DNA from: Shimia aestuarii
GTDB taxonomy: Bacteria; Pseudomonadota; Alphaproteobacteria; Rhodobacterales; Rhodobacteraceae
Length of the DNA: 64,000 nt
Assembly (NCBI RefSeq): GCF_900114635.1
Contig: NZ_FOTQ01000006.1
Span: 62,001-126,000 of the forward strand
Direction: 5' to 3'
In this document: positions 626-37,094 of the stretch, piece after piece
How the letters are laid out: the number at the start of each line of letters is the position of its first letter
Numbering within the stretch: the stretch's first letter is position 1
Program-made: the position numbers and the translations under genes
Notes under the pieces: model-generated
Seen by the model: only the letters and a program-made list of their open reading frames with translations
Told to the model about the DNA's origin: nothing
Database searches by the model: none

Positions 626-812
626 CGGCCGTGTCTGCCCGCGCGCCGGGATTACTTGGCTGGGGCCGGAAAGGGCGCGCCTCGGGGGGGCATGCTTTCC
701 GGCCGCAGATTTGACGGGGTTTCGGAAAACCGGGTCTCCGCCTGTATCCCCGGATGTCTGCTTGTCAGGACCACAGCACGCCTGAGGACCGGATCACCCA
801 TGTCCAGTCCTG

Positions 813-3824: not shown

Positions 3825-3849
3825 CGGCTTTGGGCACCTTGGTTCAGCG

Positions 3850-3865
3850 TGACAGGTCCATGTCA
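3850..3865. promoter_or_regulatory. Inverted repeat TGACA-N6-TGTCA between the regulator gene and tctC
   Basis: The 107-base divergent region holds a perfect 5-bp inverted repeat, TGACA at 3850-3854 and TGTCA at 3861-3865. A related GACA/TGTC pair lies at 3905-3914, just upstream of the tctC ribosome binding site. The repeated half-site suggests operators for the divergent response regulator. This is a pattern read by eye, not a match to a published box. Confidence 0.35.
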
Positions 3866-3931
3866 GGTTGTTGTGGTTTGCTTGGTCAACTGAGCCGCCT
3901 TTCGGACAGTTGTCAAATTTTGGAGGAAACC

Positions 3932-4918: not shown

Positions 4919-4928
4919 AGCAGGTATC

Positions 4929-4952
4929 GGCAGAGCGGGGGACCGCTCTGCC
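4929..4952 (+). terminator. Strong stem-loop between tctC and tctB
   Basis: GGCAGAGCGG (4929-4938) and CCGCTCTGCC (4943-4952) form a perfect 10-bp stem around a GGGA loop, 10 bases after the tctC stop. There is no long T run, so it may act as a partial terminator or as a 3' stabiliser that raises tctC mRNA over tctBA, as is common for binding-protein genes. Confidence 0.65.
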
Positions 4953-4973
4953 ATTTGAAAAAGGGAGGGGACA

Positions 4974-5456
4974 ATGGCACTTGATCGCTGGATTGCGTTG
5001 GTTCTTGTCGGGATTTGCCTGGCCTATGGATATGCGGCCTGGTTCACAATGGATGGCGGGTTGGCCCCGTTCATGAAACGCAACCCGATCTGGCCCAGCA
5101 CTTTTCCCAAGGTCTTGTCGGTTCTCGGCCTGATTGCCGCGCTGATCATCCTGTTTGGCCTGGAAAAGAGCGAAGTTTCGGAGCCGGACATCGATTACCG
5201 CCGCCTTGGCGACTATCACCTGGGGCAGGCGCTTTTGCTTCTGGGGCTGATGGTGGCGTATGCGCTGTGCCTGCGCCCGCTTGGTTTCCTGTTTTCAACG
5301 ACTGCTTTCCTGATCCTTGGCTCGGTCATTCTGGGGGAGCGCAAATGGTTTGTGATGGTGCCTGTCTCGGTATTTGCCACGCTGGTCGTCTGGTATCTCG
5401 TGCAACAGGTTCTTGGCATCTACCTGCGCCCGCTGCCGGGCTTTTTCGGAGGATAA
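4974..5456 (+). CDS. tctB: Tripartite tricarboxylate transporter small membrane subunit TctB
   Basis: A 160-residue membrane protein with about four hydrophobic helices (near residues 4-25, 42-63, 82-103 and 108-150), matching the poorly conserved small subunit of the tripartite tricarboxylate transporter. It lies between tctC and tctA with a good AGGGAGGGG ribosome site upstream and only four bases before tctA, so it is in the same transcript. Identification rests on position, length and topology more than on motifs. It partners TctA in the inner membrane. Confidence 0.85.
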   Translation: MALDRWIALVLVGICLAYGYAAWFTMDGGLAPFMKRNPIWPSTFPKVLSVLGLIAALIILFGLEKSEVSEPDIDYRRLGDYHLGQALLLLGLMVAYALCLRPLGFLFSTTAFLILGSVILGERKWFVMVPVSVFATLVVWYLVQQVLGIYLRPLPGFFGG

Positions 5457-5460
5457 CGGG

Positions 5461-6975
5461 ATGCTTGAAGGACTTCTGATCGGCCTGCAAACCGCGTTTT
5501 CCCTGCAAAACCTGCTGATGGTGATCGGCGGGTGTCTGATCGGCACTTTCATCGGCATGTTGCCGGGACTTGGCCCCATGTCGATTATTGCCATCATGAT
5601 CCCCGTCGCCATTTCCATGGGTGATCCCTCTGCGGCGCTTATTCTGTTGGCTGGTGTCTACTATGGCGCCATTTTCGGTGGATCGACCTCTTCGATCCTG
5701 CTCAATGCGCCCGGGGTGGCGGGCACGGTTGCCTCCAGTTTTGACGGGTATCCGATGGCCAAGCAGGGCAAGGCAGGCAAGGCGCTGACGATTGCCGCGA
5801 TTGCCAGCTTTGCCGGAGGAAGCATCGGCGCCTTGCTCCTGATGGTGTTCGCACCGGCTCTGTCCTCGGTCGCGCTGTTGTTTCATTCGGCCGAGTACTT
5901 TGCGCTCATGGTCGTGGGCCTGTCGGCGATCGCCGCTTTTGCAGGCACCGGGCAGGTCGCCAAGGCGTTGATGATGACCATTCTTGGCCTGATCATGGCC
6001 ACCGTGGGGGAAGGCGCTCTGTTCAACCTGCCGCGTTTCACAATGGGGATCATGGACCTGCAGTCGGGCTTTGGCTTCATCACGCTTGCAATGGCGATGT
6101 TTGCCTTGCCCGAAGCGTTGTTCCTGGTCCTGAAACCAAAGACGCCGCAAGACAGTCAGGATGGCGAGATCAAGGATCTGCGGATCACTTGTGCCGAAGC
6201 CAGGGCAATTGCGCCGGTCATCGGACGCCAATCCCTGCAGGGGTTCTTCATCGGGGTATTGCCCGGGGCCGGGGCAACCATTGCCAGCTTCCTTGGCTAT
6301 GCGGTGGAGCGCAATATCGCCACCAAGGAAGAGCAGGAAGAATTCGGCAAGGGCTCGATCAAGGGGCTTGCTGCGCCTGAAACCGCCAATAACGCAGCCT
6401 GCACGGGGTCGTTCGTTCCGTTGCTGACACTGGGCATTCCCGGTTCGGGCACCACCGCGATCCTGCTTGGCGCGCTTATCGCGCTGAATGTCACGCCGGG
6501 CCCGCGCCTGATGCTGGATGAGCCCCAGATATTCTGGGCTGTCATCATGTCGATGTTCATCGGCAACCTGGTGCTGCTGATCCTGAACCTGCCGCTGATC
6601 CCCTATATTGCCAAGGTGCTGTCGATCCCGCGCAACTATCTGATCCCGTTCATCCTGTTCTTCACGCTCATGGGGGCCTATATCGGCCAGAACAACGCAA
6701 CCGAGCTCTTGTTGCTGGTCGCTTTCGGGATCTGTGCCACGGCGTTGCGTTTTGCGGATTTCCCGCTTGCGCCGTTGCTTATCGGGTTCATCCTTGGGGG
6801 AATGCTGGAAGACAATTTTGCGCGTTCGATGCAGCTCTATGACGGGATTGGGTTCATTTGGGAGCGCCCCATGACGTTGGGTCTTCTGGTGATCGCCGCG
6901 TTGCTGGTTGTGCTGCCCAGCTATCGGGCGCGGCGGGCCCGCCTTCGTGCCCAGGGAGTTGCCGACGGGGACTGA
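5461..6975 (+). CDS. tctA: Tripartite tricarboxylate transporter large permease TctA
   Basis: A 504-residue permease, the usual length for TctA, with about ten to twelve transmembrane helices. The two family repeats are visible: GTFIGMLPGLGPMS near residue 26 and GFFIGVLPGAGATIAS near residue 261, each with the conserved PG-G turn. It carries out ion-coupled uptake of the organic acid delivered by TctC. The ATG at 5461, right after tctB, fits the family N-terminus (MLEGLLIGLQ); starts further upstream would overlap tctB heavily. It is the last gene of the tctCBA operon; after it the sequence turns into transposon debris. Confidence 0.93.
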   Translation: MLEGLLIGLQTAFSLQNLLMVIGGCLIGTFIGMLPGLGPMSIIAIMIPVAISMGDPSAALILLAGVYYGAIFGGSTSSILLNAPGVAGTVASSFDGYPMAKQGKAGKALTIAAIASFAGGSIGALLLMVFAPALSSVALLFHSAEYFALMVVGLSAIAAFAGTGQVAKALMMTILGLIMATVGEGALFNLPRFTMGIMDLQSGFGFITLAMAMFALPEALFLVLKPKTPQDSQDGEIKDLRITCAEARAIAPVIGRQSLQGFFIGVLPGAGATIASFLGYAVERNIATKEEQEEFGKGSIKGLAAPETANNAACTGSFVPLLTLGIPGSGTTAILLGALIALNVTPGPRLMLDEPQIFWAVIMSMFIGNLVLLILNLPLIPYIAKVLSIPRNYLIPFILFFTLMGAYIGQNNATELLLLVAFGICATALRFADFPLAPLLIGFILGGMLEDNFARSMQLYDGIGFIWERPMTLGLLVIAALLVVLPSYRARRARLRAQGVADGD

Positions 6976-7179
6976 CAGAGGCCAAGAAAATTGCCGTCTC
7001 GCACATGGAGTCTCATTAGGTCGACATTCCGTGAATCTCGGGTGTTTCCAAGGCTTGTTTTGCCGGGCCTTGTGGACCGGCACCGGCGCGTCAGAACGGA
7101 ATGGTAGCGGCGGCGGCTTCGACCGCCTTGCTCACATCTTCCAATCCGGCGGCCGGGGCAACGGTGGCCACATTACCGG

Positions 7180-7520
7180 TTGCCGGGGCGTGGCGTTCAA
7201 CGGTCTGGCCCGAAGTTTGCTTCGAAAATCCTCAAGAAGCGGGCGCAGCACTTGCGGGCTCATTCCAACTGGGGCTCGCAACTGGACGCGATGTCCGTGG
7301 AGATGTCCGGCCAGCGGCACCACACTTGGCGGGGTGTCATACATGAGGGAGAATTCCTGGAATGCTATGTGACGAAGACGCGGGACAAGAAAGCAGCATT
7401 GAAATTCCTCAAGATATCAATGCGTAGGTTTGGGCGACCCGAAGTTATCGTTACGGATAGACTTCGGTATTACGGCGCAGCAATGAAGGAAATCGGGACG
7501 CGGGTCGGCAGTAAACCTGC
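7180..7520 (+). pseudogene. Decayed IS6-family transposase fragment
   Basis: The frame across this stretch reads like the middle of an IS6-family DDE transposase: LDAMSVEMSG corresponds to the first catalytic block, TWRGVIHEGEFLECYV to the beta-strand core, TKTRDKKAALKFLK to the RDxxAAxxFL block, and VIVTDRLRYYGAAMKEIG to the second catalytic Asp block. The N-terminal HTH is missing or scrambled and the sequence diverges after KEIG, so the catalytic Glu and the C-terminus are gone. No terminal inverted repeats were found on either side. It is dead and old, lying between tctA and the 485-aa CxxCH gene. Family assignment is by recalled motif similarity. Confidence 0.7.
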
Positions 7521-7671
7521 CCAAGCTGAGACGAGTTCGAACGGGTCTGGCTGCACTGTTCTAGAAAGTCTGTGCTTGGGGCGAATCGTTGGTCTGGGCT
7601 AGGCTCGGGGCAACAACAGTATTTAATTGGTCGCGATGTTTCCGCTGAAATCGTGTTGTGGAGATCAACTG

Positions 7672-9129
7672 ATGTTGAGGATTTTGGGTTTCGCCTTGAG
7701 CGCAACCTTTGTGCTTTTCACTCATGCGCTTTGGGCTGATGAAGCGAACTGCCAATGGCAGGATCAACTCGTCTGCGCCTGTGAAAATGCCAACATCTCC
7801 CTTGACGATCCGAAGTGGCGGGCCTGTTTTCTGGGTGACGTGAATTACGCCACGACGACGCAGGTCGATCCGCTTTCATCGAGGGCTTTTTCGGCCTTGA
7901 ACTGGCCCGTTACCGTGGACGAAAACGGACAGGCGATCATTGGTGTTCCAGATCTGGATGCCGACCGGCAAGGGGATTGGACACCGGTTTGGGCAACTTG
8001 GAAAAGCACCAGGCAGATCTTTCGCGGTGGACAACCTCCCTTGGGGTGGGATGATCTTCAAAGTGCCGTTCCAGCAGCCTGCAGCGAACTGATTCTGGAC
8101 GCCGAAATGGCCAAGGTCGCATACGCGGATACGATCTCCAGGGCTGTTCCTCCAAGATTGCTGAACGAGTATCTCAATCCCGAAGGGCATGCTCTGCTGG
8201 ATGCGGCAGGCCAGCCGGTGCGTTATGACATCATTTTCAATAGGCAGGCTTACCAGTACGTGGTCGAAAACAAGCTTTGGGACCCGCGCAGTCTGGAGCA
8301 GTACATTTCCGCGAATGGCAAACTAGACATGCCTATGGGGAGTTGGGACCAAGGCGCCGACAATCCAGCGCGTCGCGGCGCCATTGCCCTGAAAACGTCA
8401 TGGAAAATCCTGACCGATGCAGATGACCCAGAACGATTTCACAAGCAATGGGCCTATATCACGCCGGTCATCTCGGAAGGGCGTCGCATCCACGATTGCC
8501 AATTGAAGCCGGTTGCGCTTGTTGGAATGCACATCGTCTACAAAACGGAAACCATGCCTGAATGGGCGTGGGGAACTTTCGAACATGTGGACGTTGCACC
8601 GACATGGGACCAGATTGGGGATACCAATGCCGGGATCACTCCGTCTGGCGAAAAGGTGCCTGACTGGCTCTTCTTCAAAAAAAATCATTCGGGTGCGGCA
8701 CAGATCAACGTTGCCCCGAAATCTGCTTTGGTCGGGAAACCTTCACGGATCGCGAAGGCCTATGAACCAGGTTATTATTTCGGACCGGTCGGCGCCAAAG
8801 GCTATTCCGCAACTCCGTGCGGACCCGCCAATCAGGAGTTCCACTGCATCAACAAGCTGATGTGGGATTTCTTTTCCGGTTCGGTGTTCGAGAATTACCA
8901 TCTGATCGGCACGCAATGGCGACAGGGCGGGGCGTATGACGGGTTGCTGATCCCGCAAATCCTGGCGAATTCCACCATGGAATCCTACAGCCAGACCACG
9001 TCGAGCTGTATCGGATGCCATTCCTATGCGGGACCGTCCGATGAGGCGGGCAAGAAGCGGGTATATGATTTTCTCTTCACTTTTGAACGCGATGTGAACA
9101 CGCTGTCCGTTCCAGTACAGGGAAATTAG
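7672..9129 (+). CDS. Exported protein with a C-terminal CxxCH haem-binding motif
   Basis: A 485-residue secreted protein starting MLRILGFALSATF with signal cleavage after LWA. I chose the ATG at 7672 because it opens directly into the signal peptide; an upstream TTG would add 15 polar residues. Cysteines cluster just after the signal (CQWQDQLVCACE). Near residue 446 there is CIGCH, a c-type haem attachment motif, with SYAGPSDEAG after it. The middle has the striking motif LVGMHIVYKT...EWAWGTFEHVD, which I associate with uncharacterised proteobacterial cytochrome-like proteins. It is the first gene of a four-gene run with short gaps (51, 21 and 31 bases). A periplasmic redox role is inferred from the haem motif; the substrate is unknown. 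Confidence 0.6.
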   Translation: MLRILGFALSATFVLFTHALWADEANCQWQDQLVCACENANISLDDPKWRACFLGDVNYATTTQVDPLSSRAFSALNWPVTVDENGQAIIGVPDLDADRQGDWTPVWATWKSTRQIFRGGQPPLGWDDLQSAVPAACSELILDAEMAKVAYADTISRAVPPRLLNEYLNPEGHALLDAAGQPVRYDIIFNRQAYQYVVENKLWDPRSLEQYISANGKLDMPMGSWDQGADNPARRGAIALKTSWKILTDADDPERFHKQWAYITPVISEGRRIHDCQLKPVALVGMHIVYKTETMPEWAWGTFEHVDVAPTWDQIGDTNAGITPSGEKVPDWLFFKKNHSGAAQINVAPKSALVGKPSRIAKAYEPGYYFGPVGAKGYSATPCGPANQEFHCINKLMWDFFSGSVFENYHLIGTQWRQGGAYDGLLIPQILANSTMESYSQTTSSCIGCHSYAGPSDEAGKKRVYDFLFTFERDVNTLSVPVQGN

Positions 9130-9180
9130 GAAACAGGTTTGACGACATCACCTTAACTCCGGCAAAGAGAGGAATACGAC

Positions 9181-9417
9181 ATGGCTGAACAAGGCACCCC
9201 TGCGTACTACACCACGATGGCAGTGGCGAAGTTGTTCGAGAACGAGCCGATGAGGGCCGAATTCATGAACATCTACAGCCAAAGCACAGCGGCTGCGCAA
9301 AAGTACCTCGAAGACAACCTTGATATTCCAGGACCGATGGCGGAGGCGATTGTCACCAAGAAAGACAAGGAACTTAGCGATTTCGTTGGCGCGAACGTCT
9401 GTACTTATCTTTGGTGA
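9181..9417 (+). CDS. Small protein of unknown function (78 aa)
   Basis: A 78-residue protein with a good ribosome site (AGAGAGG, about 9 bases before the ATG). There is no signal peptide or membrane helix. The N-terminal two thirds look helical and charged, with a run MRAEFMNIYSQSTAAAQKYL. The C-terminus ends abruptly in a short hydrophobic, Cys- and Trp-containing tail, VGANVCTYLW. It sits between the CxxCH protein and the 323-aa protein in a tight same-strand run leading to a giant sensor/cyclase. The layout of a helical leader plus a short tail is what a ribosomally made peptide precursor could look like, but I recognise no precursor family and no cleavage site. Function unknown. Confidence 0.6.
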   Translation: MAEQGTPAYYTTMAVAKLFENEPMRAEFMNIYSQSTAAAQKYLEDNLDIPGPMAEAIVTKKDKELSDFVGANVCTYLW

Positions 9418-9438
9418 TCCGCGCCTGATCGGTTCGGG

Positions 9439-10410
9439 ATGATCTGCCCACAGTCCCATGTCGAGGACGCCTTGAGCTTGATTGGACCCAATTTGATTGG
9501 GGCTGCATGTGCACGGAGCGTTTCCGCCTTTGCGGCGTCACTGCCAGATGTTGCGTCAGGGCACGTTCTGGAATGTCGGCTGGGCGAAGCCGGCGGTATT
9601 TGCGATTATTCGTTTGTGTTGAGCCGGGGAAATGGGGGGCTGGACCGGTTTGCAGCTTTTGTGCCGGAGGACCCGTTCTGGTCTCAAACAGCGGAAGTAA
9701 TCCGCTCTGCAGAAGGGGCGCTTGTGGACGCGGGCCTGATCTGGCTCGAGGTGGATTTTGGCGCGAAAGAACCGTCTCGCCCAAGTTTCTTTGTGTCGCA
9801 TGGTCCGGATCTGAGGACGCGCGCCGAGAGGTTTGATTTGGCCCGTGCCTTGGCGGGGGTATTTGATGTGTCACTAAGGGATGCCCTGGATACCCTGATG
9901 CGGAAGTTGCCCGAGCCGGTTGCGCCGAAACAAGCCGGGATCATGGCCGGACGCTCGGGAAGACAATTGAGACTGGTGCTGGACGGGATCAAGGTTTCAC
10001 AAGTTTGCGCCATGTTGGCGAGGATTGGGTGGCCCGGACATGCGCGGTCGCTGGTCCGTGTTTCGGACTTGGCACGACAGCTCGCTGGAGATGCATCCTG
10101 CCGTGTTGATCTGGATCTGGACGAAAGAGTGGCACCGTCAGTTGGACTCGAGTTGGGGTATCCGGCGCTGACCGATCCGGAACGTGTTGTAAGATGCCTT
10201 GAGGCAGAGGGGCTGTGTACACCGGATACGGGTTCAGCGTTGCATTTGGCGATGTCACGCCGGACTCTTGCCAAGCCACGAACAGGCGGTCGGATCGACT
10301 TTGGATTGAACCACTTGAAGCTTGGCTTGCGTTCCGCAGCGGCCGACATCCAGGCCAAAGCGTATTTCAGTTTGGTTAACTTGCCTGACTTTCAAGGTAA
10401 TTCCGTCTAA
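9439..10410 (+). CDS. Conserved-looking protein of unknown family (323 aa)
   Basis: A soluble 323-residue protein with no signal peptide or transmembrane helix. Its most distinctive segment is IWLEVDFGAKEPSRPSFFV near residues 94-112; the remainder is mixed alpha/beta with no catalytic motif that I recognise. It follows the 78-aa gene by 21 bases and precedes the giant fusion protein by 31 bases, so the three are probably co-transcribed and may work together, for example as a modifying or binding partner of the 78-aa protein. The ribosome site before the ATG at 9439 is weak, suggesting translation linked to the upstream gene. I do not recognise the family. Confidence 0.6.
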   Translation: MICPQSHVEDALSLIGPNLIGAACARSVSAFAASLPDVASGHVLECRLGEAGGICDYSFVLSRGNGGLDRFAAFVPEDPFWSQTAEVIRSAEGALVDAGLIWLEVDFGAKEPSRPSFFVSHGPDLRTRAERFDLARALAGVFDVSLRDALDTLMRKLPEPVAPKQAGIMAGRSGRQLRLVLDGIKVSQVCAMLARIGWPGHARSLVRVSDLARQLAGDASCRVDLDLDERVAPSVGLELGYPALTDPERVVRCLEAEGLCTPDTGSALHLAMSRRTLAKPRTGGRIDFGLNHLKLGLRSAAADIQAKAYFSLVNLPDFQGNSV

Positions 10411-10441
10411 GATCGAGATAAACCAACCGGAGAAGACTGAC

Positions 10442-13400
10442 GTGATCCGCGCAATTCAGGACAAAACAGTCAGGTCCGGCCTGTTCATGGCGGAAAGCGA
10501 TGAAGCTGGTGAACCGTTGCTGGTCTGGCAAAGCCCGGCGCAAACTCGCTTGCAGCAACGGCGCCTAGAAGCGCGACTGGCGGGCCTGCAGCAATTATCG
10601 GGAACACAGGTTGCGCAGGTGGTCGATTTCGACATGGACCACGATATTGCGCAGGTCGTGATGATGCGCCCCACAGGAGACCCCTTGTCGCGGGTGACCG
10701 GGCGAGGGGGATTGCGGGTAGGGCAATTCCTGGGGCTTGCCGTTCAAATGGCCGGTGCCGTTCAATCCCTGCACAATCGCCGCATCCCGCATGGTCATAT
10801 CAAGCCGGAGGCGCTTTACGTGCATCCGCAAACCGGTGCCGTGACGCTGGCGTTGCATCCAGATTCCATGATGCAACCGTCCGGGCGTCCTTCGGATATT
10901 GCCGGGCGCGCATTGGAAGATATTGCTTATTCAGCGCCGGAACAAAGCGGGCGGATCGAAACAGTCGCAGACCTGCGAGCGGATTTGTATGCGCTGGGCG
11001 TAGTGTTCTACGAAATGCTGACGGGTGCTCCGCCTTTCAACGCTTTGGACGAAATGGAGCTGGTGCACCAGCATTTGGCCGTCCCTCCGAGACCGCTTTC
11101 GCAAGCGCGCAAGAATGTGCCCCGCCAGCTGGCACGACTGGTGCACAAGCTTTTGGAGAAGGGGCCAGAAGCGCGGTATCAAACAGCCTTTGGCCTCTTG
11201 AGTGATTTGAAAAGATGCGTCGAGTGTTTTGAACAGGACACCGATATCCCCGAATTTGTTCTGGGCGCTCAGGATGATCACTCGGTGTTTCATATCCCTG
11301 ATCGCCTGTTTGGCCGAGAGCGGGAAGTGCGGCGCATGAACGAGGCGGCTGAGCGGGTGTGTGCCGGAGGCGTGGAATGCGTGCTCTTGGCCGGTCGAAG
11401 CGGGACGGGAAAATCGGCGCTCGCTGCAAAATTGCGTGATCTCGGGGGGACGGCACCACAGCCGCTGTTCATTTCGGGAAAATACGAGGAAATCCAGAGC
11501 CTGCCGTATCTGGCGATTATCGAGGCCTTGCGTAGCTTTGTTCTGCTCAAGGTGTCGCAAGGCCCTGAGGAACTGGAGAGCTACCGTTTGCGGCTCGTCG
11601 AGGCTTTGGGCGACAACCTGGGTGTGATCGCTGAGTTCCTGCCAGAGCTGAAGATGGTGACGGGCGACATCTCCGCTCCGGTGAACGCTGACTCGATGGA
11701 GCGCAATCAGCGTTTCCGGCTGGCCATTCAGGCTTTCTTTGAAACGATGTCGGACCCGGATAGCCCGGTCATCCTGTTTCTAGACGATTTGCATTGGGCC
11801 GAAGCCGCATCCATAACATTGCTTGAGGATATGATCCGCACTGCGCGCCTGTCTCATCTTCTGATCGTTGGAGCCTACCGCGACAATGCGAAAGGAGCAG
11901 GCGAGAAGGCAGCACGTTTGATCGACGCGTTCGTCGATGCTGGCTATCCTTGCGAAACCCTGAACATTCGCCCGCTTCAGGGGAATGATACGCTCGAGAT
12001 CATCGCCGAATCCATGGGGCTTGAGGATCGTTCGGTCGTAACTCACCTGGCGCGCGTTTTGCATGGCAAAACCCAGGGCAACGCGTTCCACCTGCGCCGA
12101 CTATTGGCTGTGCTCTATCAAGAAGGTGCAATCCGTTTCGATATGGAGGCGGCGCGATGGGTCTGGGGCATGGACGCCGTTACTCAGCACGTGGTCGAAT
12201 CCGATGTCGCTTTGCTTATGACGGAGCGGATCGAGCTATTGTCGCTGCCAGCATTGGAAATACTGCGATACGCAGCTTGCTTCGGTACCAATGTGGCCCC
12301 GGAATCGTTGCAGTTGCTGAGCGAGCGGGGTGAAGACGAGATCGAGGCTTTGTTGCAGGAAGCCGCGGACGCAGGCTTCCTCGAGCGTGACGGAACGCAG
12401 CAGGAGTTGTTCCGCTTCTCGCATGACATGGTGCGAGACGCGGCCTACCGTTTGACACCTGACGAAGACCGCGCCTTGCTGCACTATCGCATCGGGTCCT
12501 TTTTGTTGGGCGACATGGAGGACATGAACACTGATGAGCGGCTTTTCGTTGCGTTGGATCAAGTAAATCGGGGCATTGACCGCCTGCGAGACCCCCCCGT
12601 GGGCCGACTGATTGTCAGTGCTTCGCTTGCGGCGGCATACCGGGCCAAGGCTCTGGCGGCCTATGACACCGCGCATCGTTACCTCTCTGTGGCAATGAGC
12701 ATTTCAACTGATCTCGGCGGAGTCGACTGGGATGTCGAGCCCGAAATCACGGCGCGTCTGCGGCGGGAGATGCTGGAGATGACTTTTCTTGTTTCCGGTT
12801 TCGATGCCGCGCGGCCGCTTTTTGAAGAACTGCTCGAGAACTTGCCCACGCCTAGTGAGAAAGCCCGGATCTACCAGTTGCTGGTAACGCTGTTCACATT
12901 CCGGTCGGATTATGAGCAGGCGTTGGAATTCGGGGTCGCCGGGTTGAAGCTTTTGGGTATTAATCTGTCCGCACCGCTGAACCCGAAGATCGGACAGCAA
13001 TTGGCGTTGACCCATCTGGCTTTGCGCAAGCATGATGTCTTTGATTTTTCGTCGTTGCCGGAAATGGAGAACGAAGCGTCCGAGCAGTTGATGGAAATGC
13101 TCATGATCGTTTCGACGCCAGCGTTTCTGACCAACAAGGACCTGTTCGTTCTTATCTCTCTTCGGATGTTCCGGATCACGTTGCGAGACGGTTTGACAAG
13201 TGCGGGCATCTTCTCGATCCAGAACTATGCCATCGTGATGTATATCGCATTCAAGTCCGTTGACCGGGCATTTCGCATTGGCACGAACCTTTTCCCGCTA
13301 CTGGAAAGCCGGAACGTCTCTGCGCAGGTGCGCGGACGATTATATTATACTTACTGCGTCGTGGTCGCATGGCATTTCAAGGATTACGACGAATTGCATG

Positions 13401-16400
13401 CCCTGTTGGGCGAGGGCATCGGACACAGCTGGTCGGCGGTAGATCTGGAATATGTGGGGTACTTTTACTACGGCTTGTTGAAGTACACTTGGGTTGGCTG
13501 CAAGCCACTATCCAACCTATTGGCGGAGCTTGACGAGTTCGATCGGTACCAGAAACGTCTCAAACACGAAGTACTGAACGATATCACGTCTGTTTACCGC
13601 CGGGCGCTGCAACGGCTGACGGGCAGCGTCGAGGACCGGGCGTGGTCCAAACAGGATAGTGAGCTGTGGCGTGAAATGGCGGGCGAGGCAGCGGTGGGCA
13701 GTTTTCTGACCACCGAAATGCTGCTGACCCATATCTATGGCGACTGGAAGGTCGTTCGTAACCTTTACACCAGTTTGCTGGCCGAAGAGGGGTTCACGAC
13801 GCTGGGCCCCGAGTTTGTCGATTATCACCTGTTGTCTGGGTTATGCATAACGCGTCCGCCATCCGTATCGCTTGGCTTGAGTCACCGTCAACGCAGATTG
13901 CGGTTACGTAAACACCTCAAGGCGCTCAAGAGGTTGCAGGATCATTTTCCGACCAATCACAGCTTTCAGTATCTTTTGTTGCTTGGCGAGGCCGAGCGGG
14001 AGAAGGGAAACGCGGAGACCGGCCTGCTTTATGTCACCGAAGCCGTTGAGCGCGCCGAGGAGGCAGGGATCTGGTCTTATGTCGGAATCGGATGCGAATG
14101 TGCAGCCCAGGCCGCGAAGGAGTTGGATGACAAGACAGCCCGTGAAATGTGGCTGCGGCGCGCGTTGAATGCCTATGACAAATGGGGTGCCCAGTCGAAA
14201 TGTGATGAGTTGTTGGACCAGCACCCTGAACTGGAAGTGATCGCGACTACTGCTGATATGATCGGGCAACCGTCCGAACTGGATTTGTCGACCATCGTCA
14301 AGACCAGCCAGGCGATCTTGGAGATCACGGACGTAAACACGTTGCTGAAAAGACTTTTGGCAATTGCCGTAGAAAATGCAGGTGCGAATCTTGGTGAACT
14401 TTTCCTGCGCAGGGACGGCCGTCTGGTTCTCGCGGCGAGTGCAGATACGTCGCACGGAGATGTTTCGGTGACGCTCATCAAGCCGAACCTCCCTCTTGGC
14501 GAACTTTCAGATCAGAAACACCCCAAAGACCTTGTGGCCCGTGTCGAGGCGATGAAAACCTCCGTGATTCTGGCAGACGCAAGTACAGCTCCGGGTTATG
14601 AGCGCGACCGCTATGTACAGCGCAACGCGCCGAAATCCCTTTTTACGATGCCGATCATCGGGTCGGGCGAGGTGCTTGGAGTGCTGCACCTTGAAAATAC
14701 TCTGGCCAAAGGTGTGTTCACCCCCGCCCGTCGGGAAATCCTGTCAACGATCATGACGCTGGCGTCGATTTCGCTCACCAACGCGCTGCTTTATGCGCGA
14801 CAGGAAGAGGCCCTGGAAGTTGAAAAACGCGCTTCACGCGAGTTGGCAAAGATCAACCAGGCGAAGGACGAATTCCTGGCCAATACGGGCCATGAACTGC
14901 GTACGCCCTTGAATGGGATTATCGGTCTCGCGGATGGAATGCTAAGCGGTGCCAACGGGCCCATTCCTGATCAGGCACGGGCGACTCTGGATTTGATCGT
15001 TACTTCGGGGCGGCGGTTGAGCAACTTGGTCAATGATATTCTGGATTTCTCGCGGCTCAAGGACGGGCAGATCGACCTAAAGGCTGTTCCACTAGATCTT
15101 CATTCAGCCATCAACGTCGTTTTTGCCTTGATGGACAACCGCGCGCGGAGCGCGGAAGTGACGCTGGTCAACGAAGTGCCGCAGAACGCGCCCAACGTGC
15201 TCGCGGACGAAAACAGGTTGCAGCAGATCTTGTTCAACTTGGTGGACAACGCCGTCAAATTTGCGCCCGGTGGTACAGTACGGATGGGGTGCGTCGCGAA
15301 AGGCGATCGCGTGGAGATCATTGTTGCAGATGATGGGCCGGGCATTCCCGAAGAAAGCAAGACACAGATATTCCGTGGGTTCGAGCAGGTCGATGCTTCG
15401 TCCCGCCGTGAACAAGGGGGACTCGGGTTGGGGCTCGCCATAGTCGAGCGCCTGACAAAACTGCAAGGCGGCGAAATCACGGAAGTTGGGACCTTTGGTC
15501 AGGGCGCACAGTTCCGGGTAGACCTGCCTGCGACGGAAGAAGAGGCAGTTGCGCAACACGCCGGAGGTGACACAGTCTCTCGGCCGATCGTTGATGTGGG
15601 CTCTTACATGGCAGACGTGATTCTGCGGCCGTCACAGAACATTGGCAAGAAACGTCGCAACAAGGCCTTGCTGGTGGACGATGATCCAGTGAACCTTCAG
15701 GTTCTTGAAAACTACATGTCCCTTGAGGGGTTCGAAACCCAATCCGCAAGTGATGGAGAAACAGCACTAAAGCTGGTCGCTGACGGGTACGAGCCGGATA
15801 TCGTTCTTCTTGATGTGATGATGCCGCGTATGTCGGGTTACGAAGTCTGTGCGAGGTTGCGTGAAACGCATCCGGCATCGCGCCTCCCAATTGTAATGCT
15901 GACGGCCAAGAACCGGCTTGAGGATTTGCGTGCCGGATTCGAAGCGGGCGCAACGGATTACCTTGCCAAACCGTTTTCGCGTGACGAGCTTTCAGCACGC
16001 ATGCATGCTCACCTGTCTCTGACACGGGTGTCCAATGCCTATAAACGCTTTGTGCCGGTCGAGTTTCTTGATTTTCTGAAACGGGATAGCATCCTTGACA
16101 TTGATTTGGGTGACAACGTTTCGCGCAACATGACGATCATGTTCACCGACATTCGCGGGTTCACGACAATTGCGGAGAACATGACACCGCATGAGAGCTT
16201 CGAGTTCTTGAACGAATACTTCCGTCGGATCGGGCCTATTGTGCAGGAACACAAAGGGGTGGTCGCGCAATTTCTTGGAGATGGCATGATGGCTCTGTTT
16301 CCAAACGAACCGCAGGATGCGTGCAACGCGGCAATTGAAATTCAGCGAGAGCTACGCCGCATCAATGTTGACCGCGCGGCGCTCAACCTGGCACCAGTTG

Positions 16401-16897
16401 GTACCGGGATCGGGCTGCATTCCGGCGATCTGATCATGGGTATCCTTGGGGACAGGTACCGGTTGAACGGCAATGTCGTGTCGGACACGGTGAATGTCGC
16501 CGCAAGACTCGAAACCTTGACGGCGCAGTGTGGAATATCCATCGCGGCCTCGGGCGTGGTCGTCTCCGCTTTGTCAGAAAATGTGCGCGCCGAATGTCGC
16601 AAGATGACACGCGTGCGAATGGCTGGAAAGTCCAATGCCATGGATGTGTTCGAGATATTTGCAGGTGATATCGTGCCGGACATTCGCATGAAACAAGAGA
16701 CGCGGAGTGCCTTTGAAGCGGCGGGAGAGCATTTCCGCAATGCCCAGTTTGGTCTGGCGCAGTTGGCCTTTCGCGACTTGTCCGACAGGTATCCTCGAGA
16801 CTCGGCTGCAGCGTGGATGGCCGAACGTTCACGGCAGTTGGCAGTCAGCGGAGCAGAAAAAGATTGGCAGGGCGCGGATACGTTGACGCAGAAGTAG
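10442..16897 (+). CDS. Giant fusion: pseudokinase, AAA ATPase, helical repeats, GAF, hybrid histidine kinase, receiver and class III cyclase
   Basis: A 2151-residue signalling protein. The GTG at 10442 follows GGAGA by eight bases, just after the upstream gene. Domains in order: a Ser/Thr-kinase-like fold (1-260) that keeps YSAPE and DLYALGVVFYEMLTG but has HGHIKPE where HRDLKPEN is expected and no DFG, so probably a pseudokinase; an AAA/STAND ATPase (about 290-540) with Walker A AGRSGTGKSA and Walker B ILFLDDLHWAE; a long TPR-like helical region to about 1270; a GAF domain (1290-1440); a HisKA domain with GHELRTPLNGII near 1480; an HATPase with DDGPGIP and GLGLGLAI; a receiver with VDDDPVN and LLDVMMPRMSG near 1787; and a class III nucleotide cyclase with FTDIRGFT, FLGDGMMALF and DTVNVAARLE. 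It is cytoplasmic, with no membrane helix seen. Likely output is cAMP or cGMP under phospho-control; the signal is unknown. Confidence 0.88.
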   Translation: MIRAIQDKTVRSGLFMAESDEAGEPLLVWQSPAQTRLQQRRLEARLAGLQQLSGTQVAQVVDFDMDHDIAQVVMMRPTGDPLSRVTGRGGLRVGQFLGLAVQMAGAVQSLHNRRIPHGHIKPEALYVHPQTGAVTLALHPDSMMQPSGRPSDIAGRALEDIAYSAPEQSGRIETVADLRADLYALGVVFYEMLTGAPPFNALDEMELVHQHLAVPPRPLSQARKNVPRQLARLVHKLLEKGPEARYQTAFGLLSDLKRCVECFEQDTDIPEFVLGAQDDHSVFHIPDRLFGREREVRRMNEAAERVCAGGVECVLLAGRSGTGKSALAAKLRDLGGTAPQPLFISGKYEEIQSLPYLAIIEALRSFVLLKVSQGPEELESYRLRLVEALGDNLGVIAEFLPELKMVTGDISAPVNADSMERNQRFRLAIQAFFETMSDPDSPVILFLDDLHWAEAASITLLEDMIRTARLSHLLIVGAYRDNAKGAGEKAARLIDAFVDAGYPCETLNIRPLQGNDTLEIIAESMGLEDRSVVTHLARVLHGKTQGNAFHLRRLLAVLYQEGAIRFDMEAARWVWGMDAVTQHVVESDVALLMTERIELLSLPALEILRYAACFGTNVAPESLQLLSERGEDEIEALLQEAADAGFLERDGTQQELFRFSHDMVRDAAYRLTPDEDRALLHYRIGSFLLGDMEDMNTDERLFVALDQVNRGIDRLRDPPVGRLIVSASLAAAYRAKALAAYDTAHRYLSVAMSISTDLGGVDWDVEPEITARLRREMLEMTFLVSGFDAARPLFEELLENLPTPSEKARIYQLLVTLFTFRSDYEQALEFGVAGLKLLGINLSAPLNPKIGQQLALTHLALRKHDVFDFSSLPEMENEASEQLMEMLMIVSTPAFLTNKDLFVLISLRMFRITLRDGLTSAGIFSIQNYAIVMYIAFKSVDRAFRIGTNLFPLLESRNVSAQVRGRLYYTYCVVVAWHFKDYDELHALLGEGIGHSWSAVDLEYVGYFYYGLLKYTWVGCKPLSNLLAELDEFDRYQKRLKHEVLNDITSVYRRALQRLTGSVEDRAWSKQDSELWREMAGEAAVGSFLTTEMLLTHIYGDWKVVRNLYTSLLAEEGFTTLGPEFVDYHLLSGLCITRPPSVSLGLSHRQRRLRLRKHLKALKRLQDHFPTNHSFQYLLLLGEAEREKGNAETGLLYVTEAVERAEEAGIWSYVGIGCECAAQAAKELDDKTAREMWLRRALNAYDKWGAQSKCDELLDQHPELEVIATTADMIGQPSELDLSTIVKTSQAILEITDVNTLLKRLLAIAVENAGANLGELFLRRDGRLVLAASADTSHGDVSVTLIKPNLPLGELSDQKHPKDLVARVEAMKTSVILADASTAPGYERDRYVQRNAPKSLFTMPIIGSGEVLGVLHLENTLAKGVFTPARREILSTIMTLASISLTNALLYARQEEALEVEKRASRELAKINQAKDEFLANTGHELRTPLNGIIGLADGMLSGANGPIPDQARATLDLIVTSGRRLSNLVNDILDFSRLKDGQIDLKAVPLDLHSAINVVFALMDNRARSAEVTLVNEVPQNAPNVLADENRLQQILFNLVDNAVKFAPGGTVRMGCVAKGDRVEIIVADDGPGIPEESKTQIFRGFEQVDASSRREQGGLGLGLAIVERLTKLQGGEITEVGTFGQGAQFRVDLPATEEEAVAQHAGGDTVSRPIVDVGSYMADVILRPSQNIGKKRRNKALLVDDDPVNLQVLENYMSLEGFETQSASDGETALKLVADGYEPDIVLLDVMMPRMSGYEVCARLRETHPASRLPIVMLTAKNRLEDLRAGFEAGATDYLAKPFSRDELSARMHAHLSLTRVSNAYKRFVPVEFLDFLKRDSILDIDLGDNVSRNMTIMFTDIRGFTTIAENMTPHESFEFLNEYFRRIGPIVQEHKGVVAQFLGDGMMALFPNEPQDACNAAIEIQRELRRINVDRAALNLAPVGTGIGLHSGDLIMGILGDRYRLNGNVVSDTVNVAARLETLTAQCGISIAASGVVVSALSENVRAECRKMTRVRMAGKSNAMDVFEIFAGDIVPDIRMKQETRSAFEAAGEHFRNAQFGLAQLAFRDLSDRYPRDSAAAWMAERSRQLAVSGAEKDWQGADTLTQK

Positions 16898-16916
16898 GGT
16901 TGAAGATGGTTCGACG

Positions 16917-16934
16917 CTGCCACTTGGGTGGCAG
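16917..16934 (+). terminator. Stem-loop after the giant fusion gene
   Basis: CTGCCAC and GTGGCAG form a perfect 7-bp stem with a TTGG tetraloop, starting 19 bases after the stop codon and lying between convergent genes. There is no T run on either strand, so its action as an intrinsic terminator is uncertain. The rest of 16935-17106 shows no gene I can support. Confidence 0.4.
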
Positions 16935-17106
16935 GGTAATCTGAAGCTGGCCTTTGGGCGGGGTACTCGTGCTCATCAATGGTGCGGCGATCGCCGAGTG
17001 GCGCCAGCTTTGTGCGGAGTAAAACGCAGCTTTACTGTCCAAGCTCAGACGCATTCGAAACCGTCTGACAGCGCCGGCAAATCGCTTTCGGCAGACGGTG
17101 TCAGGA

Positions 17107-17910
17107 TCAATGTTTCCTGGACCTGGAATCCCCGGCCAGCAATGTGTCGATGAACTTGGAAAACAGCTCACCTTGAGAGTTGATCTGAAGCTTGGAGTAA
17201 ATGTTGCGACGGTGGATGCGAACTGTGCCGGGAGAGATTTCAAGAATACGCCCAACAGCGTCGGCGGAATGCCCTTTCAACGTATGTTCGACGACCTGCC
17301 GTTCGCGAGGGGTAAGGACGCCTTCGCCAAAACTGGTGAAGGCAATCTCAACACTGTTTTGGAGAGAGGCATCGGATTCGGGGTTGGCGCTGTTGTCAAA
17401 ACTGCTCGCCAGGGTCTTCCAATGCCTTGCACAGGTTGCCCGTACAATCGGCCAGTATTCCTTGAGTTGGCGAATCTCCTTGGCTGAAAATGCTTTCTCG
17501 GCACGCATCAGCGAGACAACGACAGTCGCGTTTCCGGGGAGGTCGATGAAGAAACCGATCTCTTCTGCAAGCCCGGTCCGCGCATAGTAGTTTCGAAAAT
17601 ACTCCCCCTGAAAAAAGCGGTCTGGGGCAAGTTCCTTGATCCGGTAAAGCCCCGGAGCGACATTGTTGACGCAAGCGAGGTAAAACGGATCCAGCAAGTA
17701 AGGCCCTTCCTGATAGTCCTCGACGAAAATTTGACGTTTACCCCTTGGGAAATCGTCAAAAAGGTCCATCGGACGAGCTGATCCGAGATACCCGAAAACA
17801 ACGGTGAAATCGAACGGCGCGATCGTGCGAAGTGTATTCGAAAGGGTGTTGGCGAAGTCGTCGGCTTCGATTGAATCGACGAGTTGTCCGGTTGCCTCGA
17901 TCAAGCTCAA
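17107..17910 (-). CDS. LuxR-type HTH transcriptional regulator
   Basis: A 267-residue regulator. The last 65 residues are a LuxR/FixJ helix-turn-helix, LTPRERQVVEHTLKGHSADA followed by LEISPGTVRIHRRNIYSKL. The N-terminal 190 residues do not show the acyl-homoserine-lactone binding signature of quorum regulators; they look like a GAF-type sensor seen in many Rhodobacteraceae. The start is a TTG at 17910 preceded by GAGAGGG at the right distance; the overlapping ATG is in another frame. It is divergent from potA by 124 bases, so control of the polyamine transporter is the simplest inference. It is convergent with the giant fusion gene. Confidence 0.82.
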   Translation of the reverse strand: MSLIEATGQLVDSIEADDFANTLSNTLRTIAPFDFTVVFGYLGSARPMDLFDDFPRGKRQIFVEDYQEGPYLLDPFYLACVNNVAPGLYRIKELAPDRFFQGEYFRNYYARTGLAEEIGFFIDLPGNATVVVSLMRAEKAFSAKEIRQLKEYWPIVRATCARHWKTLASSFDNSANPESDASLQNSVEIAFTSFGEGVLTPRERQVVEHTLKGHSADAVGRILEISPGTVRIHRRNIYSKLQINSQGELFSKFIDTLLAGDSRSRKH

Positions 17911-18034
17911 AATGCATCCCTCTCGGGTTTTTTAGTGAATATACCCAAAACGTGATATATACATCAGTTTTGATTTTTTTTACAGTTTCCGACAATACGA
18001 TGGTAGTCCAAAAATCAAAAAAAGATAGGGATAA

Positions 18035-19156
18035 ATGGAAAGCGTGCAATATGCCACCAAGACAGATTTGGTAAGCGGAAACGCGATTGCCGAGCTTAGA
18101 GGCGTGACCAAGCGCTACGGTTCAGTGTTGGCCGCCAGTGATCTCGATCTTGCAATTGAGCCGGGCGAATTTCTTTCGTTTCTGGGGCCATCAGGCTGTG
18201 GCAAAACCACGGCATTGCGCATGCTGGCAGGGTTCGAAACGCCGACCGAAGGTCAAGTGCTGCTAGACGGTGAAGTCGTGAACGATGTGGACGCCCATCA
18301 TCGTCCAGTGAACATGGTGTTCCAGCAATACGCGCTTTTTCCCCATATGACGGTGGCTCAAAACATCGGCTATGGCCTGCGCCAAATTCGTCCGCGTATC
18401 CCCAAGGAGCAGATCAATGAAAGGGTCGGCAAGGCGCTTGCAACTGTACGCCTGGCCGGGTTCGAAGACCGGCGTATCTGGGAGATGTCCGGCGGTCAGC
18501 AGCAGCGCGTTGCGCTAGCGAGGGCCATTGTCAACGAACCAAAGCTTTTGCTTCTTGACGAACCGATGGCCGCGTTGGACCGAAAACTGCGCAAGGAAAT
18601 GCAAATCGAATTGCAAGACTTGCAGCGGGAACTGGGTATTACCTTTGTTCTTGTCACGCATGATCAGGAAGAAGCTCTGTCGATGAGCGACCGCATTTGC
18701 ATCATGCGGGATGGAAGAATAGTCCAGATCGGGTCGCCGCAGGAACTCTATGACACTCCGAAATCACGGTATGTCGCCGATTTTGTCGGTACGTCCAATT
18801 TCTTTGACGGCAAAGTCGTCGGCTACCAGGGGGATTTGGTGTCCGTCCGACTGAGTGACGGTACTGTCGTAGAAGCCAGATCGCTCCATCAGGTCGCTGA
18901 CGGGCAAGATGCGTGCGTAAGCGTCCGGCCCGAGCAAATGCGATTGTCGCGCGAAGAAGGTGGGCTGCCAGTGCATGTCCACAATCGGATCTTTCTCGGG
19001 GAACATACCGAGTATCTCGTAACGCATGCGATCCTTGGTGAATTCCTGGTCCTGTCACCAAGGCAAACGGAAATGAACGATGGTCCGTTCAACGCGGGCG
19101 AAAGCCTTACGGTGTCCTGGGACGCCGGAACGGCGCTCGTATTGGAACAAGAATAA
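18035..19156 (+). CDS. potA: Polyamine ABC transporter ATP-binding protein, PotA-like
   Basis: A 373-residue ATPase that energises import. The nucleotide-binding domain shows Walker A GPSGCGKTTALRML, the signature MSGGQQQRVALARA and Walker B LLLLDEPMAALD, with the H loop in VTHDQEEAL. A TOBE-like C-terminal domain occupies about residues 285-373. These features and length fit the PotA/CysA/UgpC group, and the spermidine/putrescine-type binding protein and two permeases downstream point to polyamines. It is the first gene of an operon of potA-potD-potB-potC-SDR. An ATG at 18035 with AGGG upstream is taken as the start. Confidence 0.85.
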   Translation: MESVQYATKTDLVSGNAIAELRGVTKRYGSVLAASDLDLAIEPGEFLSFLGPSGCGKTTALRMLAGFETPTEGQVLLDGEVVNDVDAHHRPVNMVFQQYALFPHMTVAQNIGYGLRQIRPRIPKEQINERVGKALATVRLAGFEDRRIWEMSGGQQQRVALARAIVNEPKLLLLDEPMAALDRKLRKEMQIELQDLQRELGITFVLVTHDQEEALSMSDRICIMRDGRIVQIGSPQELYDTPKSRYVADFVGTSNFFDGKVVGYQGDLVSVRLSDGTVVEARSLHQVADGQDACVSVRPEQMRLSREEGGLPVHVHNRIFLGEHTEYLVTHAILGEFLVLSPRQTEMNDGPFNAGESLTVSWDAGTALVLEQE

Positions 19157-19186
19157 AAGCCACCAAACACCAACAGGAGAGAAACC

Positions 19187-20344
19187 ATGACAGACAGAAC
19201 TGACCACATCTCGAAGAAAAAGTTCATGGAGGAGTTGGAGCGCTATCGTAAAGGCTCGATCAGTCGCCGCCATTTCCTTCGTGTGACCGGCCTTGGTGCC
19301 GCCACTGCCGTTTTGGGTTCGACCATGCCTGGCCTGCGACCGCGCCCCGCTTTTGCCGGTGATATCGGGGATCGCGTTGTTTTGGCCACATGGCCGAATT
19401 ATCACGATACGGCGAATTTCGACGCCTTTACCGAGGCAACCGGTGCGCATGTGCAGGTGAATGTTTTCGGGTCGAACGAAGAAATGCTCGCCAAACTTCA
19501 GGCCGGGGCGACCGGTTGGGACGTTTATGTTCCGACGAATTACACGTTCGAAGACTATGTCAAGGAAGACCTGATCGAGCCTTTGGACGTGTCGCGCTTG
19601 CCCAACTACGAACCTGCGGCCTTTGATCCGCGTTATGCCGAAGCCGGTTCGGTGAATGGCAAGCTTTACGGTGTTCCCAAGAACTGGGGATCGACCGGCA
19701 TGGCGATCAACACCAAACACAACAATGGGAAGGGCATTTCTTCGTGGAAAGAGTTCTTTGACATCACGATGGACAAGTTCTCGGGGCGCACGGTTGTCCA
19801 CGATTATCAGCTTACCACGATCGGAAGTGCGCTGAACTATTATGGCTATTCCTTCAACTCGGTGGATGAAAAAGAGTTGGCGGATGCCGAGAAACTTCTG
19901 ATCGACGTCAAACCGCATCTTTTTGCAATCACGTCAGATTACCAGCCGCCGATGCGCAATGGTGATGCCTGGTTGACGATCTGCTGGTCGGGGGACGGCA
20001 AGCAACTTAATACCGACATGCCCGAGATTGCATATGCCCTTGGCAGCGATGGCGGCGAGATCTGGAGCGACTACTACGCAATCCCCAAAAGCTCGGAACG
20101 TAAGGATGCCGCGTACGCGCTCATCAACTTCCTGATCAATCCTGAAGTGAATGCCAAGGAGGTTCTTGCGCATGGATATCCGACAGCGGATTCGCGGACG
20201 TTTGATCTTTTGCCGGATGCGCTGAAGAACGATCCCATCATCTTCCCCGCGCAGGAGTTGCTGAGCCCGCTTGAATTCGGTGCTGCAGTGACGCTCACGG
20301 ATCCGAACCGCGCCGAGTTGATGGCGCGCTTCAAATCTGCCTGA
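19187..20344 (+). CDS. potD: Polyamine-type periplasmic binding protein with Tat signal
   Basis: A 385-residue binding protein of the PotD/PotF class. The N-terminus carries a twin-arginine export signal (SRRHFLRVTGLGAA, residues 25-38) ending near RPAFA, so it is folded before export; the classical E. coli PotD uses the Sec route. After the signal it reads VVLATWPNYHD, then YVPTNYTFEDYVKEDLIEPLD, matching the ligand-domain start of PotD proteins. It captures polyamine or a related amine for PotABC. It follows potA by 30 bases with an AGGAGAG site. The exact ligand (putrescine, spermidine or another cationic compound) is not determined. Confidence 0.83.
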   Translation: MTDRTDHISKKKFMEELERYRKGSISRRHFLRVTGLGAATAVLGSTMPGLRPRPAFAGDIGDRVVLATWPNYHDTANFDAFTEATGAHVQVNVFGSNEEMLAKLQAGATGWDVYVPTNYTFEDYVKEDLIEPLDVSRLPNYEPAAFDPRYAEAGSVNGKLYGVPKNWGSTGMAINTKHNNGKGISSWKEFFDITMDKFSGRTVVHDYQLTTIGSALNYYGYSFNSVDEKELADAEKLLIDVKPHLFAITSDYQPPMRNGDAWLTICWSGDGKQLNTDMPEIAYALGSDGGEIWSDYYAIPKSSERKDAAYALINFLINPEVNAKEVLAHGYPTADSRTFDLLPDALKNDPIIFPAQELLSPLEFGAAVTLTDPNRAELMARFKSA

Positions 20345-36831: not shown

Positions 36832-37094
36832 CGTTCCACCTCGCGGTGATTTAGATGTCCACCATACATTCTTTGGAGGCAATCACCAAATCCGAACCCG
36901 AGATCGGGCTTCCAGAACCCCAAAGTCCGCGCGACGGAAATTGATCCCAGGATTTGCTATCCGGAAGGGCATCATCCTGAGATGCTGCCCGTCTGGCCAG
37001 GTCCATGGCTGGGCCGGTGTGCCAGAAACTCTATCTTGTCATTGCGACCGAAACCGTTCTGTTGGCGCTGATGTCTGACAAGTTTGACCCACGG

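What the first reader, a model, noticed from the sequence alone, without database searches (positions are those of the whole stretch)
7672..16897. Four-gene run linking a CxxCH exported protein, a 78-aa protein, an unknown 323-aa protein and a 2151-aa sensor/cyclase
Seen directly: four same-strand genes with gaps of 51, 21 and 31 bases. The 78-aa protein has a helical body and a short VGANVCTYLW tail; the 323-aa protein has no recognised family; the last gene carries nearly every bacterial signalling module. Known: TOMM-type peptide clusters can include kinase/cyclase fusion proteins. Inference: the 78-aa product may be a modified or sensed peptide, the 323-aa protein its partner, and the giant protein the signalling hub. 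This is the strongest candidate for an undescribed system in the window.
Basis: partly seen in the sequence, partly recalled or inferred. Interest (0 to 1): 0.78.

Follow-up and report, generated by a model that had tools for sequence, protein, structure and literature searches.

The report
Mobile prenyl-peptide and sensor gene cassette
Four neighbouring genes that travel together among related bacteria appear to make a small peptide, attach a fat-like isoprene group to its tail with an enzyme recognisable only by its predicted shape, and read out the result with a giant signalling protein.

The parts
7672..9129 (+). gene A: putatively exported 485-aa protein, one CxxCH near the C-terminus, ten Cys invariant in the 7 cassettes
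   Evidence: CxxCH invariant in 14 of 14 aligned relatives
9181..9417 (+). gene B: 78-aa putative precursor peptide or small protein
   Evidence: next to A, C and D in the window and 6 of 6 further loci
9394..9417 (+). B tail N-V-C-T-Y-L-W-stop, putative prenylation site
   Evidence: N-[V/I]-C-x-Y-L-W at the extreme C-terminus in 7 of 7; DNA pattern in 3 of 275 family genomes, the three with the cassette
9439..10410 (+). gene C: 323-aa ABBA/PT-barrel-fold protein, putative peptide (Trp) prenyltransferase
   Evidence: AlphaFold2 pLDDT 89.2, pTM 0.90; Foldseek and VIA matches to prenyltransferases
10442..16897 (+). gene D: 2151-aa signalling protein, probably cytosolic
   Evidence: Pfam domains; motif check on 7 orthologues; no transmembrane-like segment shared by the orthologues
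10577..11182 (+). D: pseudokinase domain
   Evidence: Pkinase match lacking the first 48 profile positions; HRD to HGH/HGR in 7 of 7
11303..11869 (+). D: AAA_16 ATPase, Walker A and B kept
14327..14776 (+). D: GAF domain
14861..15535 (+). D: HisKA + HATPase_c, phospho-acceptor His kept in 7 of 7
15668..16000 (+). D: receiver domain, acceptor Asp kept in 7 of 7
16124..16639 (+). D: class III nucleotide cyclase domain, metal Asp residues kept in 7 of 7
7180..7602 (+). IS240-type transposase remnant at the left edge (mobility)
   Evidence: PF13610 here and beside the cassette of L032; 172-base DNA match between the two, 69%

Best explanation
The cassette is a small ribosomal-peptide modification and signalling module. 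Inferred steps: (1) B is made as a helical leader-like body with a fixed C-terminal tail GxN[V/I]CxYLW. (2) C, an ABBA/PT-barrel prenyltransferase, transfers an isoprenyl group from a prenyl diphosphate to the tail, most likely to the C-terminal Trp (Tyr or Cys possible), with the body of B serving for recognition. (3) The lipidated B, or a fragment cut from it, is the signal, or the membrane-tethered activator, that the AAA, TPR-like and GAF part of D senses; D then changes phosphotransfer (His to Asp) and cyclic nucleotide synthesis. (4) A is an exported heme-c-type protein acting on, or reporting to, the same pathway outside the inner membrane. Shown here by computation: the gene unit, its conservation and changing surroundings, the predicted fold of C, the link of C relatives to peptide-modification clusters, the invariant tail of B, and the kept and lost catalytic motifs of D. 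Not shown: prenylation, its site, processing, export and sensing.
Against: No experiment. C matches no prenyltransferase by sequence, and its putative active-site residues were not aligned with a solved enzyme. B matches no known leader family. The tail does not vary between species, unlike the ComX variants. No exporter or peptidase domain was found in the four proteins, and the genome has no C39 peptidase hit. D has no conserved membrane-like segment, so a signal would have to act inside the cell. The place of A is unexplained, and its model is poor (pLDDT 65, no fold match). Six of 290 family genomes have a D relative without A, B or C in the DNA fetched around it.
Confidence: 0.55

Rival explanations
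1. Membrane-anchor or cofactor reading (overlaps with the best explanation in the prenylation step): prenylated B is not a secreted signal but a full-length small protein tethered to the membrane, or a peptide-derived cofactor, that serves A or scaffolds D.
For: The tail is invariant in 7 of 7; no exporter or peptidase domain in the four proteins and no C39 peptidase hit in the genome; the whole of B is conserved (mean column identity 65%). A relatives occur in gene runs with a tyrosinase or a GMC oxidoreductase in 2 of the 4 plasmid loci looked at (not in 93, 94) and next to a MauG-type peroxidase gene in L021.
Against: A is putatively exported while B has no signal-like segment, so the two should be in different compartments; nothing shows B bound to A or D.
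Confidence: 0.25
2. Antimicrobial reading: the cassette makes a secreted prenylated peptide that acts on competitors, with D only regulating production.
For: The three C relatives outside the cassette lie in lanthipeptide clusters.
Against: No transporter, immunity or protease domain found in the four proteins; an invariant tail and an oversized sensor are unusual for a bacteriocin (general knowledge).
Confidence: 0.12
3. C has the PT-barrel fold but a non-prenyltransferase role, for example binding B or a small aromatic ligand.
For: No sequence match to known prenyltransferases; the invariant residues on the strands include five acidic ones (E45, D56, E104, D106, E238) and only R178, K294, K307 and H292 as basic ones.
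Against: The charged and aromatic residues on the strands are kept across proteobacterial and cyanobacterial relatives, and an ABBA enzyme of a lanthipeptide cluster (MppC, PMC12715784) is an active Trp geranyltransferase.
Confidence: 0.15
4. TOMM-type thiazole/oxazole peptide system with a kinase/cyclase fusion.
For: D shares an AAA-region and a kinase-region stretch with TIGR03903 (83 and 26 bits); a YcaO gene lies 14 kb away in the window; one D relative of six lies in a run with a YcaO gene.
Against: The score is far below the 706-bit cut-off, and the model also rings below its cut-off in 14 of 14 control genomes; no YcaO among the four genes; no YcaO relative in the fetched flanks of the other cassettes; no B matches a TOMM precursor model.
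Confidence: 0.04

Closest known systems
PalP-PalX-PalQ of Paenibacillus alvei (PMC10853753; abstract and sections 2.1 and 2.3 read)
   Same: Three-gene unit of histidine kinase, precursor of about 80 residues with C-terminal Trp (core DNVRRFFW) and prenyltransferase; here B ends ANVCTYLW.
   Different: PalQ is related to isoprene synthases and PalX has an NHLP leader; here the enzyme has the PT-barrel fold, B matches no NHLP model, the kinase is a giant hybrid with a cyclase, and a CxxCH protein is added.
ComQ-ComX-ComP-ComA of Bacillus (PMC5331326; passages read)
   Same: Peptide with a prenylated Trp near its C-terminus, prenyltransferase, histidine kinase and receiver in one cluster.
   Different: ComQ shares homology with farnesyl diphosphate synthases and ComP is a transmembrane kinase; here C has the PT-barrel fold and D has no shared membrane segment and a fused receiver.
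Lanthipeptide prenyltransferase MppC (PMC12715784; main text, parts 1 and 2 of 3, read)
   Same: ABBA-type enzyme of a LanM cluster with a Nif11-like leader that geranylates Trp in a leader-dependent way; C relatives L019, L045 and L046 lie in such clusters.
   Different: No LanM or Nif11 precursor in the cassette; direct homology of C and MppC was not tested (MppC sequence not at hand).
Cyanobactin F-type prenyltransferases and NctPC (PMC13290415; abstract, sections 2.3 and 2.4 and passages read)
   Same: ABBA-barrel fold, peptide substrates including Trp.
   Different: No protease domain in the four cassette proteins; no sequence match of C to a known prenyltransferase.
TIGR03903 TOMM kinase/cyclase fusion
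   Same: Kinase-like, AAA and cyclase parts beside a small peptide gene.
   Different: Far below the family cut-off; D adds HisKA, HATPase_c and a receiver.

Membership tests
ABBA/PT-barrel prenyltransferase (fold class) | five alpha-alpha-beta-beta repeats forming a ten-stranded barrel | tested here: met
ABBA/PT-barrel prenyltransferase (fold class) | recognised by a sequence model of a prenyltransferase family (usual, not strictly defining) | tested here: inconclusive
   no match in Pfam, NCBIfam or PDB sequences; PMC13290415 notes low similarity even between known groups of this fold
ABBA/PT-barrel prenyltransferase (fold class) | prenyl-diphosphate and acceptor residues in the barrel | tested here: inconclusive
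   10 of 11 invariant charged/Tyr residues lie on strands; not mapped on a solved enzyme
ABBA/PT-barrel prenyltransferase (fold class) | transfer of a prenyl group | not testable with these tools
   needs an assay
Lanthipeptide prenyltransferase (MppC-like) | gene in a cluster with LanM and a Nif11/NHLP precursor | tested here: not met
   cassette: none among the four genes and no DUF4135 hit in the own genome (its controls were silent too); the 3 non-cassette relatives meet it
Cyanobactin cluster | PatA/PatG-type proteases | tested here: not met
   no protease domain in the four proteins
ComQXPA | isoprenoid-synthase-type ComQ | tested here: not met
   C has the PT-barrel fold
ComQXPA | precursor with Trp at or near the C-terminus | tested here: met
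   C-terminal Trp in 7 of 7
ComQXPA | membrane histidine kinase receptor | tested here: not met
   HisKA/HATPase_c present but no transmembrane-like segment shared by the 7 orthologues in a hydropathy scan
PalQXP | NHLP-type leader in the precursor | tested here: not met
   0 of 7 B members match TIGR03793 at E up to 10; hhalign probability 0.7%
PalQXP | C-terminal Trp plus neighbouring histidine kinase | tested here: met
TOMM with kinase/cyclase (TIGR03903) | score above the family cut-off | tested here: not met
   83.3 bits against 705.75
TOMM with kinase/cyclase (TIGR03903) | YcaO cyclodehydratase in the cluster | tested here: not met
   none among the four genes; nearest YcaO at 30895-32088, no relative in the fetched flanks of the other cassettes

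The most novel reading that the evidence does not exclude
A Gram-negative counterpart of ComQXP that arose independently: a PT-barrel enzyme, shared with lanthipeptide clusters, prenylates the invariant C-terminal NVCxYLW tail of a small protein, and a cytosolic pseudokinase-ATPase hybrid histidine kinase/cyclase reads the lipopeptide, all on one mobile cassette that also carries its own exported c-type heme protein.
Probability: 0.3. Interest if true: 0.85.

Novelty: new variant of a known kind. Interest (0 to 1): 0.72.

Why it matters
In the papers read here, a prenylated peptide tied to a histidine kinase is described as a signal in Bacillus (ComX), and a Trp-prenylated peptide with a clustered histidine kinase in Paenibacillus (PalX). 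This cassette would extend the theme to alphaproteobacteria (Sulfitobacter and kin; class recalled) with a different enzyme fold and a cytosolic receptor, and it gives a putative peptide prenyltransferase that the sequence libraries do not recognise. It is directly testable with two small proteins and prenyl diphosphates.

Tried and rejected
NHLP or Nif11 leader in B: the eye sees a resemblance to the NHLP peptides of L046, but neither model matches any of 7 B members at E up to 10 (the four models that did match one member each are unrelated, best E 0.0045 for a dehydrogenase model), and profile comparison gives probability 0.7% (NHLP, 9 sequences) and 6.4% over 15 columns (Nif11, 4 sequences; single-comparison E 0.0057); not claimed.

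TOMM_kin_cyc for D: rejected on the cut-off.

First A scan of genome contigs with the window protein alone: 4 pattern matches, 0 relatives; the profile scan then found 6. C hit in G118: false, a binding-protein-like frame beside stops; dropped. PF11468 in 200 phylum genomes: nothing, and the controls were silent too, so no evidence of absence. C alignment A4 in 398 phylum genomes: only G000 and G250. Weak Pfam matches of single C members (DUF2267 E 0.055, DUF6205 E 0.1) were taken as chance.

Fold of A: low-confidence model, 0 matches at E 0.001 or less; inconclusive. Residue mapping of C on a solved prenyltransferase: not possible, no sequence hit to align. Homology to MppC not tested. Promoter- and terminator-like sites are no more than in shuffles, and no Rfam match.

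L017 and L030 (G137, Seohaeicola zhoushanensis) and L018 and L032 (G251, Sulfitobacter sabulilitoris) are the same loci and are counted once.

Print search: no paper on such a cassette was listed in searches of the held open-access library (top rows only seen); most subscription papers are not covered.

The odds of the readings overlap, since several share the prenylation step.
Full report
Observation. The four ORFs and their gaps are as described. Here they are called A (7672-9129), B (9181-9417), C (9439-10410) and D (10442-16897). None of A, B or C of the window has a Pfam or NCBIfam match below E 0.1. D carries Pkinase-like, AAA_16, GAF, HisKA, HATPase_c, Response_reg and Guanylate_cyc domains.

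One unit. A profile of three A proteins found 6 relatives among 39 pattern matches in genome contigs; a first scan with the window's A alone had found none. All 6 have B, C and D directly after A, in the same order and strand: an uncultured Sulfitobacter, a Tropicimonas, Seohaeicola zhoushanensis, a Sulfitobacter MAG, Sulfitobacter sabulilitoris and Antarcticimicrobium sediminis. This scan can only find close A relatives, so it was checked from the other genes. In the window's family, C was found in G000, G137 and G251 plus a distant one in G250 (295 genomes; a fifth hit, G118, was false). Close D (48% identity or more over the first 653 residues) was found in G000, G137 and G251 (290 genomes). 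The B tail pattern was found in the same three (275 genomes; the backward control pattern matched once, in another genome). The one other genome of the window's genus in these searches, G210, has none of the three. Apart from one 61-base match to L029 and the transposase remnant, DNA similarity of window 5001-19500 to the other six loci stays within the cassette. IS240-type transposase fragments lie beside the cassette in the window and in L032. The unit therefore seems to move as a cassette. Differences between window and L028 by codon position (A 132/91/302, B 21/19/42, C 147/97/205, D 535/340/1233) show coding constraint on all four.

C relatives belong to peptide modification. Outside the cassette three relatives were found, and all three lie in class II lanthipeptide clusters: L019 (G250: DUF4135/LANC synthetase, JmjC and Nif11 precursor, with the C gene divergent from them); L045 (Pseudanabaena galeata plasmid: LanM, Nif11-type precursors, C domain fused to a 2OG-Fe(II) oxygenase); L046 (Nostoc sp. 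UHCC 0926 plasmid: LanM, radical SAM, one Nif11 and one NHLP precursor confirmed by model and two more by eye). A published ABBA enzyme from such a cluster, MppC, geranylates a Trp of its precursor in a leader-dependent way (PMC12715784, main text parts 1 and 2 of 3 read). This is the main reason to see B as the substrate of C.

B. Seven B proteins (77-79 aa) share a conserved body and the fixed end N-[V/I]-C-x-Y-L-W-stop, x being T, T, K, G, D, D, D. Trp, Tyr and Cys are all possible prenyl acceptors; the C-terminal Trp is the likeliest by analogy with PalX, whose core DNVRRFFW is prenylated on its C-terminal Trp by PalQ, in a cluster with a histidine kinase (PMC10853753, abstract and sections 2.1 and 2.3). 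B is not recognisably an NHLP or Nif11 leader. The fixed tail argues against a strain-specific pheromone.

D. The Ser/Thr kinase-like domain has lost HRD and DFG in 7 of 7, whereas Walker A/B, the phospho-acceptor His, ATP-binding boxes, receiver Asp and cyclase metal Asp are kept in 7 of 7; where a Lys is usual in the cyclase (recalled) there is Q in 6 and N in 1. Residues 801-1000, read here as TPR-like from their place after AAA_16 (no TPR model matched D; a relative, L049, weakly matches one), are among the best conserved (45 and 47 invariant per 100). No transmembrane-like segment is shared by the orthologues, so D should sit in the cytosol. Six of 290 family genomes have D relatives (28-35% identity) with no A, B or C in the DNA fetched around them (for L047 only 7.6 kb). 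One of these six lies in a run with a YcaO gene and a Trp-halogenase gene (L049) and another next to a nucleotidyltransferase PF14907 (L047).

A. A has an N-terminal hydrophobic segment, ten Cys invariant in 7 of 7 cassettes, and a CxxCH invariant in 14 of 14 aligned relatives. More distant relatives occur widely without the cassette: 8 of 385 class genomes including the own one and 24 plasmid records. Four plasmid loci were looked at: one has a tyrosinase and one a GMC oxidoreductase in the same gene run, two do not. In L021 a MauG-type peroxidase gene is next to it, and one relative (L023) carries a cytochrome P460 match just below the cut-off. A redox role is likely, but its link to B is unknown. 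Its model is poor and matches nothing.

Mechanism. The best-supported chain is: C prenylates the tail of B; the product activates or tethers D; D signals by phosphotransfer and cyclic nucleotide. Only the gene unit, the predicted fold and the conserved features rest on results. Export is a weak point: no transporter domain in the four proteins and no C39 peptidase hit in the genome (8 of 14 controls ring). A membrane-anchor reading is therefore kept as the main rival.

Comparison. It works like ComQXP (PMC5331326, passages) and PalQXP but fails their defining enzyme class or leader class. It shares the enzyme fold with cyanobactin and lanthipeptide prenyltransferases (PMC13290415, sections 2.3 and 2.4; PMC12715784) but lacks their clusters. 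Filed as a new variant of a known kind.

Noticed in passing
window 30895-32088 (-) and 32126-34606 (+): A YcaO gene (the only YcaO hit in the genome) stands head to head with a cyclase-BTAD protein that weakly matches a 'putative peptide modification system cyclase' model (24 bits, cut-off 400); possibly a second peptide-modification locus in the window.
   Followed up: partly
window 35104-36882 (-): Animal-haem-peroxidase-like protein about 3 kb from the YcaO gene.
   Followed up: no
L049 (G078), 93-11280: YcaO protein, a Trp-halogenase gene with a weaker second one (just below the cut-off), and a giant kinase-AAA-GAF-cyclase protein in one run: a candidate halogenated peptide cluster with a built-in sensor.
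   Followed up: partly
L046 (Nostoc sp. UHCC 0926 plasmid pn1), 1-8981: Mixed cluster of LanM, Nif11 and NHLP precursors, radical SAM and a C-family gene in a record whose PLSDB gene table lists one feature.
   Followed up: partly
L045 (Pseudanabaena galeata pPg_03), 7001-8794: C-family domain fused to a 2OG-Fe(II) oxygenase, annotated only as oxygenase.
   Followed up: partly
L048, 5222-7513; L047 right edge: Lipoxygenase-type protein next to a D-like giant in L048; the cut-off ORF after the D-like gene of L047 begins alike by eye.
   Followed up: no
window 17107-17910 (-): LuxR-type regulator converging on the end of D; its conservation beside other cassettes was not checked.
   Followed up: no
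L029-L033, B to C gap: The spacing between B and C is exactly 34 bases in 5 of 7 cassettes, and by eye C often lacks a clear ribosome-binding site where B has one.
   Followed up: no
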